A stretch of 37,959 nt of DNA, from IMG/VR virus record IMGVR_UViG_3300006104_000817, positions 1-37,959 of that record. One strand, 5' to 3'. The notes under the pieces were generated by a model. It was not told the origin of the DNA. It did not search any database and was given only the letters and a program-made list of their open reading frames with translations. The first letter of the stretch is position 1, and each line of letters begins with the position of its first letter. This stretch comes from a virus. Below, piece after piece: positions 17,556 through 25,170 of the stretch. A program made the position numbers and the translations under genes.

Positions 17556-17870
17556 ATGAAAATTCTAGCGTTTAAATTAATTACAGGTGAAGAAGTTCTT
17601 GCCGAAATCGAAACTGAATCCGAAACCGAATTTGTTCTTGTTAATCCAGTTGGCATTGCTGTTGTCCGTGATCCAAAAACTGGACAACCACAAGTTGGCT
17701 TCGCACCTTTTCCTATCCATGCTGAACAAAAAAGTGGATCTACCATTGTATTATCTAAGAAAATTGTGGTATATAATTATGTACCAGCCGAAGATTTTAT
17801 CACCAATTACAATTCTATCTTTGGAACAGGATTGATTGTTCCCCCTAAAAAACAAATCATCACCGGTTAA
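17556..17870 (+). CDS. conserved phage protein, possible LSm-like fold
   Basis: A 104-residue protein with FKLITGEEVLAEIE, FVLVNPVGIAVV and a later KKIVVYNYVP segment: five or so strands in the Sm-like order. It resembles the protein at 484 in its opening pattern and may be a distant paralogue. The start follows GAGG, and its stop overlaps the polymerase start by one base, placing it in the gene 43 operon. Function unknown; RNA binding would be inference. Confidence 0.75.
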   Translation: MKILAFKLITGEEVLAEIETESETEFVLVNPVGIAVVRDPKTGQPQVGFAPFPIHAEQKSGSTIVLSKKIVVYNYVPAEDFITNYNSIFGTGLIVPPKKQIITG

Positions 17871-19360
17871 TGGGCTTCTATACATCAGTCCAGTGCCTTG
17901 GTAATAATATTCTTTACCGAGGCGTAATAGATGGCAAGAGGGTTAAGGCAAGAATAAATTATTCACCTTCTCTCTTTGTGCCATCTAAGAATGTAACCAA
18001 CTTTACTTCACTCGATGGTATATACCTAGACCGGAAAGTCTTTGGTGACATCAGTGAAGCCCGTGATTACATCAAGCAATTTAAAGATGTTGATAATTCC
18101 CATAAGATATATGGAAATAACAGGTTTGAATATGCTTATATTGCTGATCAACATCAAGGTATGGTAGAATGGGACCAAGATAAGATTTTGATTGGTGTAA
18201 TTGATATTGAGGTTAGTTCGGAAAATGGATTTCCAAATCCTTATGATGCTAATGAGCCCATCACAGCAATTACTATTACATATCTCAATGGCGATACTTA
18301 TGCTTTTGGATGCGGTGATTACCAAGTTCAGAATAAAGAATTATATGTAAAGTGTAAAGATGAATATACTTTGTGTAAAAAATTCATGGAACTATGGAAA
18401 GCCAAGTGTCCTGATATTCTTACTGGATGGAATACAAAATTCTTTGATGTTCCTTATATCATAAACCGATTTAAAAAAATTCTAGGTGAAGATGAAGCAA
18501 AAAAATTATCTCCTTGGGGTCATATTTCCGAACGCCAAGCATTTGTATCTGGTAGACAGTTACTAGCATATGATATTCTAGGTGTATCATCACTTGATTA
18601 TATTGAACTATACAAATGGTATGCTCCATCAGGTAAATCACAAGAATCATATAAGTTAAATTCTATTGCCAATGTTGAACTCGGTGAAAGTAAATTATCG
18701 TTTGAAGAATATGATACACTGAATGAATTATATCGATTGAACTTTCAAAAATTTTTGGAATATAACATAAAAGATGTGGAACTCATTATAAAATTGGAAG
18801 ATAAGTTGAAGTTATTGGAATTAGCAATTACTTTAGCCTATGATACTAAATCTAATTATGATGATGTATTTGCTCAAACTAGAATGTGGGATGCATTAAC
18901 ATACTCTTATCTGTTAGAACGAAATATCATTGTACCACCTAAGATCACTAAAGATAAAGATGCTTCTTTTGAAGGTGCATATGTTAAAAGTCCTCAAGTA
19001 GGTAAACATGATTGGGTTGCTTCTTTCGATTTGGATTCTCTCTATCCTCATCTCCTGATGCAGTACAATGTAAGTCCAGAAACATTAATCCAACCAGAAA
19101 ATTATACGCAAGAAATGCTTGATATTCTTTCTTCTGGAATTTCTGTTGATAAGATGTTAAAAAAAGAAGTTGATACCTCCAAATTAGTAAATGCAACAAT
19201 CACACCTAACGGCCAATTTTTTAGAACAGATCATCAAGGATTTCTGCCCAAGATGATGGAAGAGATGTACCAAGATCGGAAGAAATTTAAGAATTTAATG
19301 CTTCAAGCAAAACAAGATTATGAAAATGTTTTAACGGAACTTGAAAAAAGAGGATTGTAA
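17870..19360 (+). CDS. 43: DNA polymerase gp43, N-terminal piece (exonuclease and first half of palm)
   Basis: Family B replicative polymerase, first part, 496 aa. Exonuclease motifs: DIE at 112-114, TGWNTKFFD at about 185-193, and YNIKDVE at about 298-304. Polymerase motif A is SFDLDSLYP at about 385-393. It ends at TAA 19358-19360 soon after KKFKNLMLQAKQDYE, in the fingers and before motif B, so it cannot polymerise alone. The remainder is encoded from 19401. Split polymerase genes (43A/43B) are known in some Aeromonas T4-like phages, where a homing endonuclease lies between the halves; here only about 40 nt separates them. Confidence 0.9.
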   Translation: MGFYTSVQCLGNNILYRGVIDGKRVKARINYSPSLFVPSKNVTNFTSLDGIYLDRKVFGDISEARDYIKQFKDVDNSHKIYGNNRFEYAYIADQHQGMVEWDQDKILIGVIDIEVSSENGFPNPYDANEPITAITITYLNGDTYAFGCGDYQVQNKELYVKCKDEYTLCKKFMELWKAKCPDILTGWNTKFFDVPYIINRFKKILGEDEAKKLSPWGHISERQAFVSGRQLLAYDILGVSSLDYIELYKWYAPSGKSQESYKLNSIANVELGESKLSFEEYDTLNELYRLNFQKFLEYNIKDVELIIKLEDKLKLLELAITLAYDTKSNYDDVFAQTRMWDALTYSYLLERNIIVPPKITKDKDASFEGAYVKSPQVGKHDWVASFDLDSLYPHLLMQYNVSPETLIQPENYTQEMLDILSSGISVDKMLKKEVDTSKLVNATITPNGQFFRTDHQGFLPKMMEEMYQDRKKFKNLMLQAKQDYENVLTELEKRGL

Positions 19361-19400
19361 AAGTTACCGATAATAAAATTAAAAAATAAAGGTGAATGTT

Positions 19401-20514
19401 TTGAAATTATTAAAAGATATGTCTGATTCAGAATTGATTGATTATAAACATGAACTGGAAAGGAGAGTTGCGAAATATGATAATTTGCAACTTGCGAAAA
19501 AGGTGTCACTTTAACTCCGCTTACGGCGCACTTGGCTCCCCATATTTTAGATTCTATGATTTAAGAATGGCACTTGCTGTTACATTGTCTGGTCAGTTCT
19601 CTATTCGTTGGATTGAGGCTAAGATTAATGAATACATGAATAAGTTATTAGGAACTGATGCAGATTATGTTATTGCTTCGGACACAGATTCAATTTATTT
19701 AAGACTTGGTGATTTAGTTAAGAAAATTTATAGTGATGATGTTTCTGTTATAATGAATCCTAATAAAATAATCGAATTCATGGACAAAGTGTGTGAAGAT
19801 AAAATTAAACCATATATCGATAAATCATTTCAAGAATTGGCTGACTATGTTCATGCTTATGACCAGAAGATGCGGATGAAACGAGAAGCATTGGCAGACA
19901 AAGGTATCTGGACTGCTAAGAAGCGTTATATTCTTAATGTGTACAACAATGAGGGTATTACATATAACGAACCACACATGAAAGTAATGGGTTTGGAAAT
20001 GATCAAATCTTCTACTCCTCAAGCAATTCGAGTTAAGATGTCGGAAGCTATTAAGTTAATGTTATCTGGAACTGAAGATGATATACATAAGTTTATTGTT
20101 GATTTTAAAGAAGAATTTAGTAAGTTGCCCGCGGAAGAGATTTCTTCACCTCGAGGACTCAACGGATTGAATAAATACTCTGATGCTGCTACCCTATTTA
20201 AGTTGGGAACACCAATTCATGTTAGGGGTGCTATACTTTACAATCAATTTTTAAAAGACAATAAACTCACTAAAAAATATCCACTCATACAAGAAGGCGA
20301 GAAAATCAAGTTTACTTACTTGAAGATGCCCAATCATTTGAAAAATAATGTAATATCATATCCATCTCGTCTACCAAAAGAATTTAAATTACAAGAATAT
20401 ATTGACTATGATATGCAGTTCTCTAAAGCGTTCATAGATCCTATTAAGATAATTTTAGATTGTATGGGATGGAAAATAGAAAAGATGAGTACACTGGATA
20501 CATTTTTTGGATGA
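19401..20514 (+). CDS. 43: DNA polymerase gp43, C-terminal piece with an apparent +1 frameshift
   Basis: Carries motif B (KKVSLNSAYGALGSP), motif C ASDTDSIYL and the thumb with AKKRYILNVYNNEG and MGLEMIKSSTP. The first frame begins at TTG 19401 behind AAGGTGA and reads LLKDMSDSELIDYKHELER and on to KKVSL, then meets TAA 19512. A +1 shift there gives NSAYGALG and an open frame to 20514. The start codon is uncertain (TTG 19401, ATG 19419 or GTG 19392). A start inside the body frame (ATG 19438) would lose the essential Lys of motif B. The two pieces must associate, as in other split family B enzymes. Confidence 0.85.
19500..19515 (+). other. prfB-like +1 frameshift site in gene 43
   Basis: AAGGTG, three bases (TCA), then CTT TAA C. 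The bacterial RF2 gene uses an internal Shine-Dalgarno, three bases, then CTT TGA C to shift +1. The spacing and slip codon are the same; the stop is TAA instead of TGA. Slipping CTT to TTT continues as AAC TCC GCT TAC, the N-S-A-Y of polymerase motif B. Confidence 0.65.
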
Positions 20515-21476: not shown

Positions 21477-22400
21477 ATGAGCATACTTGATAAGATTAAA
21501 AAGAACACAACGATTAAAGATTCTGCTATTCTGTCGCAATCAAAATTCTTTACCGAAAAGGATATGATTCAGACTTCAATTCCTATATTAAATGTGGCAT
21601 TATCTGGTCGATTCGATGGCGGTTTAACACCCGGTTTAACAATGTTTGCAGGTCCGTCAAAACATTTTAAGACAGCATTTTCATTAATGATGGCAAAAGC
21701 ATATTTGGACAAGTATGATGATGCCGCTTTGTTATTCTATGATACTGAATTTGGTTCACCGCAATCATATTTTGATTCATTTGGTATTGATACTGATCGT
21801 GTTCTTCATACACCTATTACCGATATTGAGCAATTGAAGTTTGATATTATGAAACAACTCCAAGATTTGGCTCGCGGAGAACATTTAATTATTATTGTTG
21901 ATTCGATCGGTAATCTGGCATCAAAAAAAGAAGTAGATGATGCACTTGATCAAAAGTCTGTTGGTGATATGTCCAGAGCAAAACAAATCAAATCATTGTT
22001 TAGAATGGTTACTCCACATTTAAATCTCAAAGATATTCCAATGGTTGTAGTAAATCATGTTTACATGGAAATAGGTATGTTTCCTAAAGCCATCGTTGGA
22101 GGCGGTTGTGTTGTTGAGGGCACCAAGATTCAAACACCTGATGGATTGACTGAAATTCAGAACTTCAGGATCGGCGACCAAGTTGTCCATAAATCTGGCC
22201 AAATTGAGGTTAGACATACATGGAATCCAGAAACACTCTACCATGGTTATCCTGAATGTTTTGAGGTTGAATTTGAAGATGGATACAAAGTTGTATGTTC
22301 AGATACACACAAATTTTTTATCGGTGATATATGGATAGAGGCAAAGGATTTAGTTTCTGGTATGGATGCGAAAATCGTATCTGTAGGACCGAGAAATTGA
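21477..22400 (+). CDS. uvsX: UvsX recombinase N-terminal extein fused to split N-intein
   Basis: RecA-like strand-exchange protein, first 210 residues, then an intein N-part. The extein has the P-loop region GLTMFAGPSKHFKTAF, the Walker B strand LIIIVDSIGNL and VVVNHVYMEIGMFPKAIVGGG. Cys211 opens the intein; typical block A (CVVEGTKIQTPDG) and block B (VVCSDTHKFF) follow, ending at TGA after SVGPRN. The C-terminal half is a separate gene from 22543, so active UvsX needs protein trans-splicing. AAGGTAATTT precedes the start. Confidence 0.92.
   Translation: MSILDKIKKNTTIKDSAILSQSKFFTEKDMIQTSIPILNVALSGRFDGGLTPGLTMFAGPSKHFKTAFSLMMAKAYLDKYDDAALLFYDTEFGSPQSYFDSFGIDTDRVLHTPITDIEQLKFDIMKQLQDLARGEHLIIIVDSIGNLASKKEVDDALDQKSVGDMSRAKQIKSLFRMVTPHLNLKDIPMVVVNHVYMEIGMFPKAIVGGGCVVEGTKIQTPDGLTEIQNFRIGDQVVHKSGQIEVRHTWNPETLYHGYPECFEVEFEDGYKVVCSDTHKFFIGDIWIEAKDLVSGMDAKIVSVGPRN
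22107..22397 (+). other. N-half of the UvsX split intein
   Basis: 97 residues from Cys1 with blocks A and B, a canonical split position near where endonuclease domains usually sit. Its last residues, AKIVSVGPRN, contain the same KIVSV that opens the C-half. Confidence 0.9.
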
Positions 22401-22546
22401 ATTTTGATAGTAACTTGTGGAAAAATCCAGCATCAATAAGCCAACGCAGGGATATTTGTGTTCATTGTGGTAAAGAGAGTGTTGCTGGCAATATCAGTCG
22501 TTGGCATAATGATAATTGCAAACAAAATAAAGGTGAAACTAAATGA
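22401..22546 (+). pseudogene. homing-endonuclease zinc-finger relic between the UvsX intein halves
   Basis: An open stretch in another frame, with no start of its own, encodes CVHCGKES..ISRWHNDNC: a C-x2-C-x12-H-x3-C zinc finger very like those in phage HNH and GIY-YIG homing endonucleases (CxHCGK..RWHxDNC). No nuclease catalytic domain remains. It ends overlapping the C-intein start and appears to be the remnant of the endonuclease that once joined or invaded the intein. Confidence 0.65.
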
Positions 22547-22659
22547 AAATAGTTAGTGTAAAAACGGTAGGTAGTAAACCCGTGTATGATATTTCTATTA
22601 AATCTGATGATTATGATGAACAATATTATGTGCTGGAAAATGGAGTAATGAGCCATAAC
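22543..22659 (+). other. C-half of the UvsX split intein
   Basis: 39 residues ending SHN, with Ser as the +1 extein nucleophile. It begins MKIVSV, repeating the KIVSV at the end of the N-half, although the bases differ at synonymous positions. Confidence 0.9.
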
Positions 22660-23067
22660 TCAGGAAGTTATTATTCCGCAGATAATATTTTCATTATTGG
22701 TAGGCAACAAGAAAAAGAGGGAACAGAAATTGTCGGCTATAATTTTATTATTAATATTGAAAAGAGTAGGTATGTTCGTGAGAAATCCAAAATACCTGTT
22801 ACCGTATCTTTTGATGGTGGTATTAGCAGGTGGTCTGGTTTACTTGACCTCGCTCTAGAGTCCGGACATGTTATTAAACCTACTAATGGATGGTACTCAA
22901 AAGTAGATAAAGAAACTGGTGAGATTGAAAATAAGAAATATCGGATTAAAGATACTGATACAAAAGAATTCTGGACTCCAATTCTAAATCAAGAATCTTT
23001 TACCAAGTTCGTTTCAGATAAGTATTCCGTATCAACAGAAAATATTATGGGGGTGCATGATGATTGA
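22543..23067 (+). CDS. uvsX: split C-intein fused to UvsX C-terminal extein
   Basis: Residues 1-39 are a C-intein with block F (KPVYDISIKSDD..YYVLENG) and block G (VMSHN followed by Ser40). The extein, residues 40-174, continues SGSYYSADNIFIIGRQQ and the rest of UvsX to the C-terminus. Ligation would give IVGGG-SGSYYSADN, matching uninterrupted UvsX, and a product of about 345 aa. AAAGGTGA upstream provides a ribosome-binding site. Confidence 0.92.
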   Translation: MKIVSVKTVGSKPVYDISIKSDDYDEQYYVLENGVMSHNSGSYYSADNIFIIGRQQEKEGTEIVGYNFIINIEKSRYVREKSKIPVTVSFDGGISRWSGLLDLALESGHVIKPTNGWYSKVDKETGEIENKKYRIKDTDTKEFWTPILNQESFTKFVSDKYSVSTENIMGVHDD

Positions 23068-23395
23068 GGGCGAGCATTATTGTTACATCTATCCTAAAGA
23101 TAGTAACAAGTCAGTAGATATTAAACTCTTAGAAGGACCATATAAAGATACCACATTCAGATATGGTAAGGTAAAGTTTGAAGAAAAAAATGAACAGTGT
23201 TATTTACTATTCAATTATGATGTGATACAATCCTCTGTAGATAAACCAAAAAAGTTAGAAAAAAACGAAGATTTTAAAAACTATATTGGTAATTTATTAG
23301 TGGAAATTATGAGTTCAAATATAGAACAGGATATTGATGATGAAACTAGAGCAGACCATATTGAAGAATCTGATTTACAACGAGGATTATCTTAG
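23057..23395 (+). CDS. conserved hypothetical protein between uvsX and 41
   Basis: A 112-residue protein with an N-terminal strand-rich part (HYCYIYPKDSNKSVDIKLLEG, FRYGKVKFEE, LLFNYDVIQS) and an acidic helical tail. Tandem ATG codons at 23057 and 23060 lie behind GGGGG. It overlaps both uvsX and gene 41, so it is part of the same translation unit. Genes of unknown function occupy this position in related phages; I know no activity for it. Confidence 0.75.
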   Translation: MMIEGEHYCYIYPKDSNKSVDIKLLEGPYKDTTFRYGKVKFEEKNEQCYLLFNYDVIQSSVDKPKKLEKNEDFKNYIGNLLVEIMSSNIEQDIDDETRADHIEESDLQRGLS

Positions 23396-23993
23396 AAAAG
23401 TATTACCATTTATAAAAACGGATTACTTTACCGAAAGGCATGAGAAAACACTATTTAATGAAATACAATCCTTCACGAATACTTACAATTCAACACCCAC
23501 GATTGAGGCGCTTAGTATTGCCGTCAAAGAAAAAAATAATCTTACAAATGACGAAGTACAGAAATGTGAAACTTATTTACAAGAAATTGAATCTAATAAA
23601 GAAACAAGTTCCGAGATTCAATGGCTTATTGACAAAACCGAAAGATTCTGCCAAGAGAAAGCGATTTATAATGCAGTATTGGGGTCTATTTCAATACTGG
23701 ACGGTAAGGACAAAGACCATGAGAAAGGTGCGATTCCCAAAATATTATCGGACGCTTTATCTGTAAGTTTTGATAATTCTGTGGGACATGATTATCTCCA
23801 GGATTCTGATAGTCGATATGAATTCTATCATCGGAAAGAAGAAAAGATTCCTTTTGATTTGGAATACTTTAATAAGATCACTAAAGGTGGCCTTCCCAAT
23901 AAAACACTTAATATCGCTTTGGCTGGTTGTGTTCATCCAGAAACTAAAGTTAAAATTAGGTATTGGAAACATACTGCCAGTTTGAGGTATTAA
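23337..23993 (+). CDS. 41: gp41 helicase N-terminal extein fused to a 21-residue split N-intein
   Basis: First 197 residues of the DnaB-type replicative helicase, with the N-terminal domain (EQTILKNLIYNEDYLRKVL) and the linker up to GGLPNKTLNIALAG. The intein starts at Cys198 (CVHPETKVKIRYW) and stops after only 21 residues. Splitting so close to block A is the atypical arrangement known from a few metagenomic phage inteins such as AceL-TerL. The break lies inside the Walker A loop, so neither half can bind ATP alone. The start is ATG 23337 or 23340. Confidence 0.9.
   Translation: MMKLEQTILKNLIYNEDYLRKVLPFIKTDYFTERHEKTLFNEIQSFTNTYNSTPTIEALSIAVKEKNNLTNDEVQKCETYLQEIESNKETSSEIQWLIDKTERFCQEKAIYNAVLGSISILDGKDKDHEKGAIPKILSDALSVSFDNSVGHDYLQDSDSRYEFYHRKEEKIPFDLEYFNKITKGGLPNKTLNIALAGCVHPETKVKIRYWKHTASLRY
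23928..23990 (+). other. ultra-short N-half of the gp41 split intein
   Basis: 21 residues covering block A only. GAGG within these codons serves as the ribosome-binding site of the downstream C-half. Confidence 0.88.
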
Positions 23994-23994
23994 A

Positions 23995-24372
23995 ATGAGT
24001 TTATTTGAAGAAAAAGTTGTAAATATTTCTGAAATAGAAGTATTATTAAATAATGGTTATTCTGTTGAAGTTGAATCTCCGGACGGATTTGTTCCCGTAT
24101 CAGCATTTGTTGATAAAGGAGACTGGCCAGAATACGTTCTAAGTACATCTAGCGGAAAAACAGTTAGGTGTAACTCTGACCATTTATTTGAAACCCCTTT
24201 CGGATGGAAAAAATCCGCAGCAATGGTGAATATATCTGACGCAAAGGTGCTGACTGCTGATGGATGGGAAGAGTGTTCCGTTATAAAAACGGAAAATAAA
24301 ATTCCTATTGTTGATATACAGGTAGAGCATAAGAACCATAGATATTATACCGAAGGAGTTTCTTCACATAAT
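23995..24372 (+). other. C-half of the gp41 split intein
   Basis: 126 residues ending SSHN with Thr as the +1 residue. No endonuclease domain is present between its splicing blocks. Confidence 0.88.
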
Positions 24373-25170
24373 ACTGGTGTAGGAAAATCCTTGTTTATGT
24401 GCCATGTTGCTGCTGGTGCTATGGTACAAGGAAGAAATGTTTTATATATAACACTCGAAATGGCAGAAGAAAAGATTGCTGAGAGAATTGATGCAAATCT
24501 ACTTAATGTTACTATAGATGATTTACTGGAACTTCCTAAGGATATGTATGATAAGAAGGTCACGAGGGTTCGTGAAAAGACTACGGGTAAACTTATTATT
24601 AAAGAGTATCCTACGGCATCTGCATCGGCTACTCATTTTAGGACTCTACTTAACGAACTTAACCTTAAGCGTAATTTTATCCCAGATATTATCTTTATTG
24701 ATTATCTTAATATTTGTTGTTCTTCACGGGTTAAAGCTGGTGCTAATGTTAATTCCTATACCTATGTTAAAGCAATTGCTGAAGAACTTAGAGGATTGGC
24801 TGTTGAACATAATGTGCCTATTGTTAGTGCCACTCAAACAACGAGAAGTGGATTTACATCATCGGATCCTGGCCTGGAAGATACGAGTGAATCGTTCGGA
24901 CTTCCCGCCACCGCAGACTTGATGTTTGCTCTAATAAACTCGGAAGAACTTGAAGAACTAGGGCAAATGATGGTAAAACAGTTGAAAAATAGGTATTCTG
25001 ATCCAACACATTTTAAACGATTTACGATTGGTGTGGATAGGTCCAAGATGCGATTATATGATGTAGAGCAGTCTGCTCAAACAGGTATTGCTGATGCTGG
25101 TCATCAAGGCCTTGGTGCTCACAATAAAATTAAACAAGAGAAAAAATCTTTTGATGGTTTTAAAATATGA
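23995..25170 (+). CDS. 41: long split C-intein fused to gp41 helicase C-terminal extein
   Basis: Residues 1-126 are a C-intein with block B (VRCNSDHLFETPFGW), block F (IPIVDIQVEHKNHRYY) and block G (VSSHN followed by Thr127). The extein then reads TGVGKSLFMCHVAAG (rest of Walker A), VLYITLEM, IFIDYLNI (Walker B) and VSATQTTRSGF, the RecA-type motor of gp41. Ligation gives ALAG-TGVGKS and a helicase of about 462 aa, near T4 gp41 (475). ATG 23995 is one base after the N-half stop, so the halves are translationally coupled. Confidence 0.92.
   Translation: MSLFEEKVVNISEIEVLLNNGYSVEVESPDGFVPVSAFVDKGDWPEYVLSTSSGKTVRCNSDHLFETPFGWKKSAAMVNISDAKVLTADGWEECSVIKTENKIPIVDIQVEHKNHRYYTEGVSSHNTGVGKSLFMCHVAAGAMVQGRNVLYITLEMAEEKIAERIDANLLNVTIDDLLELPKDMYDKKVTRVREKTTGKLIIKEYPTASASATHFRTLLNELNLKRNFIPDIIFIDYLNICCSSRVKAGANVNSYTYVKAIAEELRGLAVEHNVPIVSATQTTRSGFTSSDPGLEDTSESFGLPATADLMFALINSEELEELGQMMVKQLKNRYSDPTHFKRFTIGVDRSKMRLYDVEQSAQTGIADAGHQGLGAHNKIKQEKKSFDGFKI

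What the first reader, a model, noticed from the sequence alone, without database searches (positions are those of the whole stretch)
23928..24372. Atypically split intein in gp41 with a 21-residue N-half
The intein is cut just after block A, leaving 21 residues on the N-side and 126 on the C-side. Naturally split inteins cut this early are rare (AceL-TerL and the VidaL UvsX intein are known examples). Here it interrupts the Walker A loop of the replicative helicase, so helicase activity depends absolutely on trans-splicing. The two genes are one base apart, with the ribosome-binding site of the C-half inside the N-intein codons.
Basis: partly seen in the sequence, partly recalled or inferred. 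Interest (0 to 1): 0.85.

Follow-up and report, generated by a model that had tools for sequence, protein, structure and literature searches.

The report
Helicase intein split by departed endonuclease
A lake phage makes its replication helicase as two proteins that a self-splicing intein, cut almost at its start, should join; relatives in the same phage group show the intein whole, cut by a selfish endonuclease gene, and still cut after that gene has left, which shows how such split inteins arise.

Summary
gp41 is encoded in two ORFs: IN of 21 aa (23928-23990), TAA, one base, then ATG and IC of 126 aa (23995-24372). The intein lies inside the Walker A loop (AG|TGVGKS). About 75 close gp41 relatives have the exact empty site. 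All class-1 splicing residues are present and dN/dS is ~0.1, so it is very probably a working trans-splicing intein; no splicing was tested.

It is not an isolated rarity. A pattern scan found ~95 matches, all at this one gp41 site: about 12 contiguous, ~50 fractured between 14-20-aa IN and ~125-aa IC by the same antisense HNH homing-endonuclease gene (HEG), and five split without it. Two clean empty/filled HEG pairs exist. The window's own clade holds three states: HEG-fractured, split without HEG, and re-joined. The window's IC start codon lies in sequence shared with the right end of the HEG insert. So its split is best read as a HEG fracture that outlived the HEG.

Split site and fold match VidaL (Foldseek TM 0.89). 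Known kinds: atypical split inteins and 'fractured genes'. New: this family, HEG entry away from the usual endonuclease site, and the whole-fractured-split-rejoined series.

The parts
23340..23993 (+). gp41 N-half gene: N-extein (23340-23927) plus N-intein and stop
   Evidence: phrog_19 DnaB-like helicase E 3.2e-45; start set by homology to L004
23922..23927 (+). first part of the Walker A loop (Ala-Gly), N-extein side of the splice junction
   Evidence: sequence; joins 24373 in ~75 intein-less relatives
23928..23990 (+). N-intein IN, 21 aa (CVHPETKVKIRYWKHTASLRY), Cys1 nucleophile and block A
   Evidence: family alignment
23980..24003 (+). 24-nt scar in the split loop; includes the N-half stop and C-half start; TTAAAATGAGTTTA is shared with the right end of the HEG insert in L004 and is absent from contiguous L086
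   Evidence: junction comparison
23984..23988 (+). Shine-Dalgarno-like GAGGT for the C-half, inside N-intein codons
   Evidence: 6 nt before ATG
23995..24372 (+). C-intein IC, 126 aa (MSLFEEKVVNISE...VSSHN)
   Evidence: best PDB relative VidaL
24181..24183 (+). block B histidine (IC residue 63)
   Evidence: invariant in A2 and A3 as H78
24313..24315 (+). block F aspartate (IC residue 107)
   Evidence: invariant in A2 and A3 as D121
24367..24372 (+). penultimate His and terminal Asn of the intein
   Evidence: invariant
24373..25170 (+). gp41 C-extein, beginning with Thr+1 and the rest of Walker A (TGVGKS)
   Evidence: phrog_19 E 4.7e-81, Pfam DnaB_C 8e-17

Best explanation
This is a class-1, atypically (S1) split intein in the Walker A loop of a T4-type gp41 helicase. 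The two halves are translated separately, the C-half probably by a ribosome that starts again at the GAGGT/ATG next to the N-half stop. The 21-residue IN docks into the 126-residue IC, completing a VidaL-like Hint fold; Cys1, block B His, block F Asp, His-Asn and Thr+1 then ligate AG to TGVGKS and restore Walker A. The split arose when an HNH homing-endonuclease gene inserted, antisense, into the loop after strand 2 of a contiguous mini-intein, bringing a stop for the N-half and a start signal for the C-half. In the window lineage the endonuclease gene was later deleted and the split stayed. Shown: anatomy, empty sites, filled/unfilled HEG pairs, shared scar, purifying selection, fold of a contiguous homologue. 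Inferred: splicing itself, translational coupling, homing activity, direction of each step.
For: Empty gp41 site in ~75 relatives. Catalytic residues invariant across the family. dN/dS 0.08-0.11 in IC with intein dS 0.36-0.48 against the window. AlphaFold of contiguous homologue L086, pLDDT 97, with the cut in loop 14-19 between strands 7-13 and 20-25; Foldseek best hit VidaL, TM 0.89, rmsd 1.6; VidaL's sequence breaks at the homologous place. HEG origin: L086 (whole) versus L089 (858-bp insert), flanks 98.9% and 100% identical; L204 (whole) versus L230 (HEG); 52 of 52 insert HEGs are one antisense family; 72 of 74 HEG hits show gp41-intein sequence beside them by motif and one more (L157) on inspection; the closest relatives L004/L005 carry this HEG between 92%-identical halves; the window keeps the insert's right-end TTAAAATGAGTTTA; L228 uses an ATG lying in the HEG remnant. 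HEG-less splits need 4 separate changes on the tree.
Against: No splicing data. The window's scar is only 24 nt, so the match to the insert end is short, and its left half resembles L089 better than L004. The tree is unrooted for this trait and recombination among phages could mimic gains and losses. The contig is a fragment, so a second gp41 elsewhere cannot be excluded.
Confidence: 0.83

Rival explanations
1. The split is a recent frameshift or stop: an intein (and gp41) in decay, or a sequencing error.
For: Only one base separates the ORFs, and they lie in different frames.
Against: L002 repeats the junction at 5494/5495 identity. Both halves are under purifying selection. The C-half has its own SD and ATG. 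Other lineages have the same architecture with overlaps, short gaps or 650-1575-bp gaps.
Confidence: 0.04
2. The two ORFs are fused at translation by a +1 frameshift near TAT-TAA, so the intein works in cis and is not really split.
For: The frames overlap for 5-8 nt before the stop and a GAGG lies just upstream; a +1 shift would give an open fused chain.
Against: No known slippery motif. Close relatives have an 851-bp HEG between the halves, where fusion is impossible, with the same IC start. The other HEG-less splits have different junctions.
Confidence: 0.06
3. The short gap is the primary state: the intein was split by a small insertion, and the HEG invaded an already split intein.
For: The window branches outside the L005 (HEG) + L006 (cis) pair, 99/94.
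Against: In the second lineage the HEG sits in an otherwise unchanged contiguous intein (L086/L089), as also in L204/L230, so fracture is directly seen. L228 keeps HEG sequence in its coding start.
Confidence: 0.1

Closest known systems
VidaL atypically split intein (PDB 6vgv)
   Same: Split after strand 2 (S1), very short IN (16 aa), Cys1, same fold (TM 0.89, rmsd 1.6) and homologous break point (PMC13014065)
   Different: Only ~29% identical; its native host gene could not be checked here. Here IN is 21 aa (14-21 in the family), in gp41 Walker A, with contiguous and HEG-fractured sister forms
Fractured genes (Dassa et al. 2009, NAR; known here by citation and memory only)
   Same: Phage replication gene broken by a split intein with a free-standing endonuclease gene between the halves: the arrangement of ~50 relatives
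   Different: The window has lost the endonuclease gene; the HEG is HNH plus an I-TevI-like DNA-binding domain, antisense, and sits at S1, not the canonical split site
gp41-1 split intein
   Same: Phage gp41, split intein, weak profile similarity (6qaz, E 6e-7)
   Different: Canonical split with a long IN (from memory, ~88/37), at the H4 site, not Walker A
AceL-TerL / GOS-TerL
   Same: Natural split inteins with a short IN (25 and 37 aa)
   Different: Cut after helix 1 (S2), in terminase (PMC13014065, PMC11766414)
M. smegmatis DnaBi1 (P-loop intein)
   Same: Intein in the P-loop of a replicative helicase
   Different: Contiguous, class 3, +1 is the P-loop Ser (PMC6195587); here class 1, +1 is the Thr five residues before it

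Membership tests
class-1 intein | Cys/Ser1, block B His, block F Asp, penultimate His, terminal Asn, Cys/Ser/Thr+1 | tested here: met
   C1, H63, D107, H125, N126 of the window halves and T+1; invariant in family alignments. IN positions 1-10 were fixed by the search pattern, so their invariance is not independent
class-1 intein | Hint fold | tested here: met
   AlphaFold of contiguous homologue L086 (63% identical to the window IC), pLDDT 97, inteins fill the Foldseek list; the split pair itself could not be folded as a complex
atypical (S1) split intein, VidaL-like | halves on separate ORFs, break between strand 2 and strand 3, before helix 1 | tested here: met
   IN ends and IC begins in loop 14-19 of the model
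atypical (S1) split intein, VidaL-like | trans-splicing of the paired halves | not testable with these tools
   needs co-expression
fractured gene (split intein with endonuclease gene between halves) | endonuclease gene between the two halves | tested here: not met
   window gap is 1 bp and no HEG relative is in the contig; met in L004, L005 and ~50 others
gp41-1-type canonical split intein | long IN, short IC, split at the canonical endonuclease site | tested here: not met
   IN 21, IC 126
AceL-TerL-type (S2) split intein | break after helix 1 | tested here: not met
   helix 28-34 of the model lies in IC
mobile intein | history separate from the host gene | tested here: met
   intein 84-96% identical against 64-82% in exteins and neighbours; extein dS saturated

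The most novel reading that the evidence does not exclude
Splitting is reversible here. One dedicated HNH endonuclease repeatedly enters and leaves the S1 loop of a single gp41 intein family, leaving behind whole, fractured, HEG-less split and re-joined inteins (L006 shares 177 identical nt of N-extein and IN with HEG-bearing L233 and lacks the FEEK segment that its relatives keep). The HEG enters away from the canonical endonuclease site because, as a free-standing gene, it escapes the steric limit proposed for in-frame endonuclease domains.
Probability: 0.45. Interest if true: 0.75.

Novelty: new variant of a known kind. Interest (0 to 1): 0.62.

Why it matters
How natural split inteins arise has been argued from isolated cases. 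Here one site in one gene shows the steps side by side in close relatives, including two nearly perfect before/after pairs for the endonuclease insertion. It bears on the question stated by Beyer et al. 2019 (PMC6801210): why endonuclease domains in inteins sit at one site, and whether others exist. The family also offers dozens of short N-inteins, two of them 14 aa in sequence (L170, L181), one less than the shortest characterised (15 aa, PMC10189870), which are attractive for peptide-to-protein ligation if they splice.

Tried and rejected
An intact second gp41: none in the contig, but the contig is partial. Sequencing error: rejected by L002. The same HEG elsewhere in the window: none. Cultured phages: IC relatives at most 37% identical, those listed being in UvsX or terminase where annotated. 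Bacterial and archaeal genome contigs: no relative. Pfam's intein models barely see this intein (PF14890, E 0.019, below cut-off), so library hits alone would have missed it. Repeats across the junction: nothing beyond chance-like matches. Promoter scan of the L004 insert: no more than in shuffles; a late-promoter-like motif seen by eye was not pursued. Papers by Dassa 2009, Thiel 2014, Neugebauer 2017 and Burton 2020 were not available to read (Dassa: look-up failed; the others did not come up in the searches).

Full report
OBSERVATION. The window carries gp41, the T4-type replicative helicase, in two ORFs. Both match phrog_19 on adjoining parts of the profile, 159-361 and 362-595. The N-half ends in CVHPETKVKIRYWKHTASLRY (21 aa, 23928-23990), stop TAA; after one base the C-half starts at ATG 23995 with 126 aa of intein ending ...VSSHN (24372), then TGVGKS. 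The extein junction AG|TGVGKS is Walker A. An SD-like GAGGT sits 6 nt before the ATG, inside N-intein codons. The junction is not an assembly error: L002, from another IMG/VR record, is identical at 5494 of 5495 bases.

EMPTY SITE. Of the 80 best gp41 relatives in IMG/VR, nearly all (L007-L081) have no intein and join the two exteins with a gap of zero at exactly this point. So the insert boundaries are established by comparison, not only by motif.

SISTERS OF THE WINDOW. L004/L005 have the same intein (IC 92% identical) but with 851 bp between the halves, holding an antisense ORF of 274 aa. It matches phrog_655 homing endonuclease (E 2e-21), Pfam HNH weakly and I-TevI_DNA-bd above its cut-off. 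L006 has the same intein (92%) in one uninterrupted ORF of 17 + 119 residues. A second lineage (63% alike) shows the insertion event itself: L086/L087/L088 are contiguous (...RFRKRISNFEEKSVNISE...), and L089 is fractured by the same kind of HEG in the same loop, with flanks 98.9% and 100% identical on either side of an 858-bp insert.

THE FAMILY. A degenerate DNA pattern for CVHP(D/E)TKVxI drew 97 loci from IMG/VR; all lie in gp41 at this site. Among non-identical loci: about 12 contiguous, ~51 with a long insert, six HEG-less split records of five kinds (window, L180, L196, L228 = L257, L239), the rest cut off by contig ends. IN lengths run from 14 to 21 aa, mostly 16-17; the window's 21 is the longest, because its last residues are encoded by the scar. 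The long ORFs in the inserts form one HEG family, 52 of 52 antisense to gp41; some inserts also carry an unrelated sense ORF. Conversely, 72 of 74 HEG relatives show gp41-intein sequence beside them, a 73rd (L157) on inspection, and only L153 lies elsewhere.

HOW THE WINDOW'S SPLIT AROSE. Contiguous L204 reads TTTCTTG|GTGGATTG; HEG-bearing L230 has TTTCTTG-A... and ...AAAAT-GTGGATTG. The insertion thus makes the stop of the N-half and the start of the C-half at its two ends. In the HEG-less split L228 the start ATGGAATTT lies in what is HEG-insert sequence in L174, so that split outlived a HEG. L239 keeps a stretch like the right end of the insert (TTTATTTATATGA). The window keeps TTAAAATGAGTTTA, as at the right end of the L004 insert, which the contiguous L086 lacks. 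On a tree of 63 inteins made without the linker columns, HEG-less splits need four separate changes, and the window forms a 100/100 clade with L005 (HEG) and L006 (contiguous). L006 shares its N-extein and IN (177 nt) at 100% with L233, which has the HEG. L006 lacks the FEEK segment found at the homologous place in its relatives, contiguous or split, so it looks like a deletion that removed the HEG plus some 20 nt and restored the frame. This rests on a single contig.

SELECTION AND MOBILITY. Between the window, L005 and L006 the IC has dN/dS 0.08-0.11 and dS 0.36-0.53, while the exteins are saturated in dS. Along the alignment, identity is 84-96% in the intein and 64-82% outside. The intein is maintained as a protein and has moved between phages more recently than gp41 diverged.

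FOLD. AlphaFold2 of contiguous L086 with 31 family members gives pLDDT 97. The split loop is residues 14-19, between strands 7-13 and 20-25 and before helix 28-34, i.e. S1 in the nomenclature cited in PMC13014065. Foldseek's best solved structure is VidaL, TM 0.89, rmsd 1.6; it is also the best by sequence (E 2e-11 to 5e-17), and the VidaL chain reads ...IRLTKKGMIEEKK..., consistent with a break at the homologous place.

MECHANISM. Shown: anatomy, conserved residues, selection, fold of a whole homologue. Inferred: coupled translation, docking of IN into IC, and trans-splicing to restore Walker A, without which neither half should hydrolyse ATP. Whether HEG cleavage targets the contiguous intein or intein-less gp41 is open.

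NOVELTY. The kind is known: naturally split inteins with short IN (VidaL 16, PolB16 OarG 15, AceL-TerL 25, GOS-TerL 37 aa), and phage genes fractured by split intein plus endonuclease gene (Dassa 2009, seen only as a citation). P-loop inteins in replicative helicases are known. I found no account of this gp41 family, of HEG entry at S1, or of such a series. Beyer et al. say all endonuclease domains in inteins sit at one conserved site and ask why others are not found; a free-standing gene that splits the intein is one way round the limit they propose. Caveat: key papers were unreadable, and from memory one (Neugebauer 2017) tested a 'VidaL T4Lh-1' intein that might be a T4-like helicase intein.

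CONFIDENCE. Working split intein ~0.9; HEG fracture followed by HEG loss in this lineage ~0.85; re-joining in L006 ~0.6.

Noticed in passing
window 21477-23067: UvsX is also broken by a split intein, here of canonical type: IN CVVEGTKI...VGPRN (~98 aa, ends 22397) and IC MKIVSV...VMSHN (39 aa, from 22543) before SGSYYS. So two recombination/replication proteins in a row would need trans-splicing.
   Followed up: partly
window 22331-22546: Small ORF overlapping both UvsX intein halves matches the later part (178-234) of phrog_655 homing endonuclease (E 1.4e-4): probably a decayed HEG of the same broad family, i.e. another fracture losing its endonuclease.
   Followed up: partly
window 17870-20514: DNA polymerase gp43 is in two ORFs (17870-19360, 19438-20514) that match separate phrogs 2062 and 1918 besides the whole-length phrog_262; no intein was recognised at the break.
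   Followed up: no
L170, L181: N-inteins of only 14 aa (CVHPETKVKIRFRK, CVHPETKVKIRFKK), shorter than the shortest characterised natural IN (15 aa).
   Followed up: no
L255: Besides the Walker A split intein, a second intein-like C-terminus (...ILTHN|SNSDVGLEDTSES) lies further down gp41, at the H4-type site used by gp41-1.
   Followed up: no
L190, L168, L187 and six others: The HEG insert also carries a sense-strand ORF of one family (MDAQEFRNLQEAY... in L190), cargo of unknown function.
   Followed up: no
L004 705-1529 (-): The antisense HEG reading frame overlaps the end of the N-intein ORF by 29 nt, so the last HEG residues are encoded opposite intein codons.
   Followed up: no
L153: The one HEG relative found away from gp41; its C-terminus ends in a YHFDNCK motif like the UvsX remnant of the window.
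   Followed up: no
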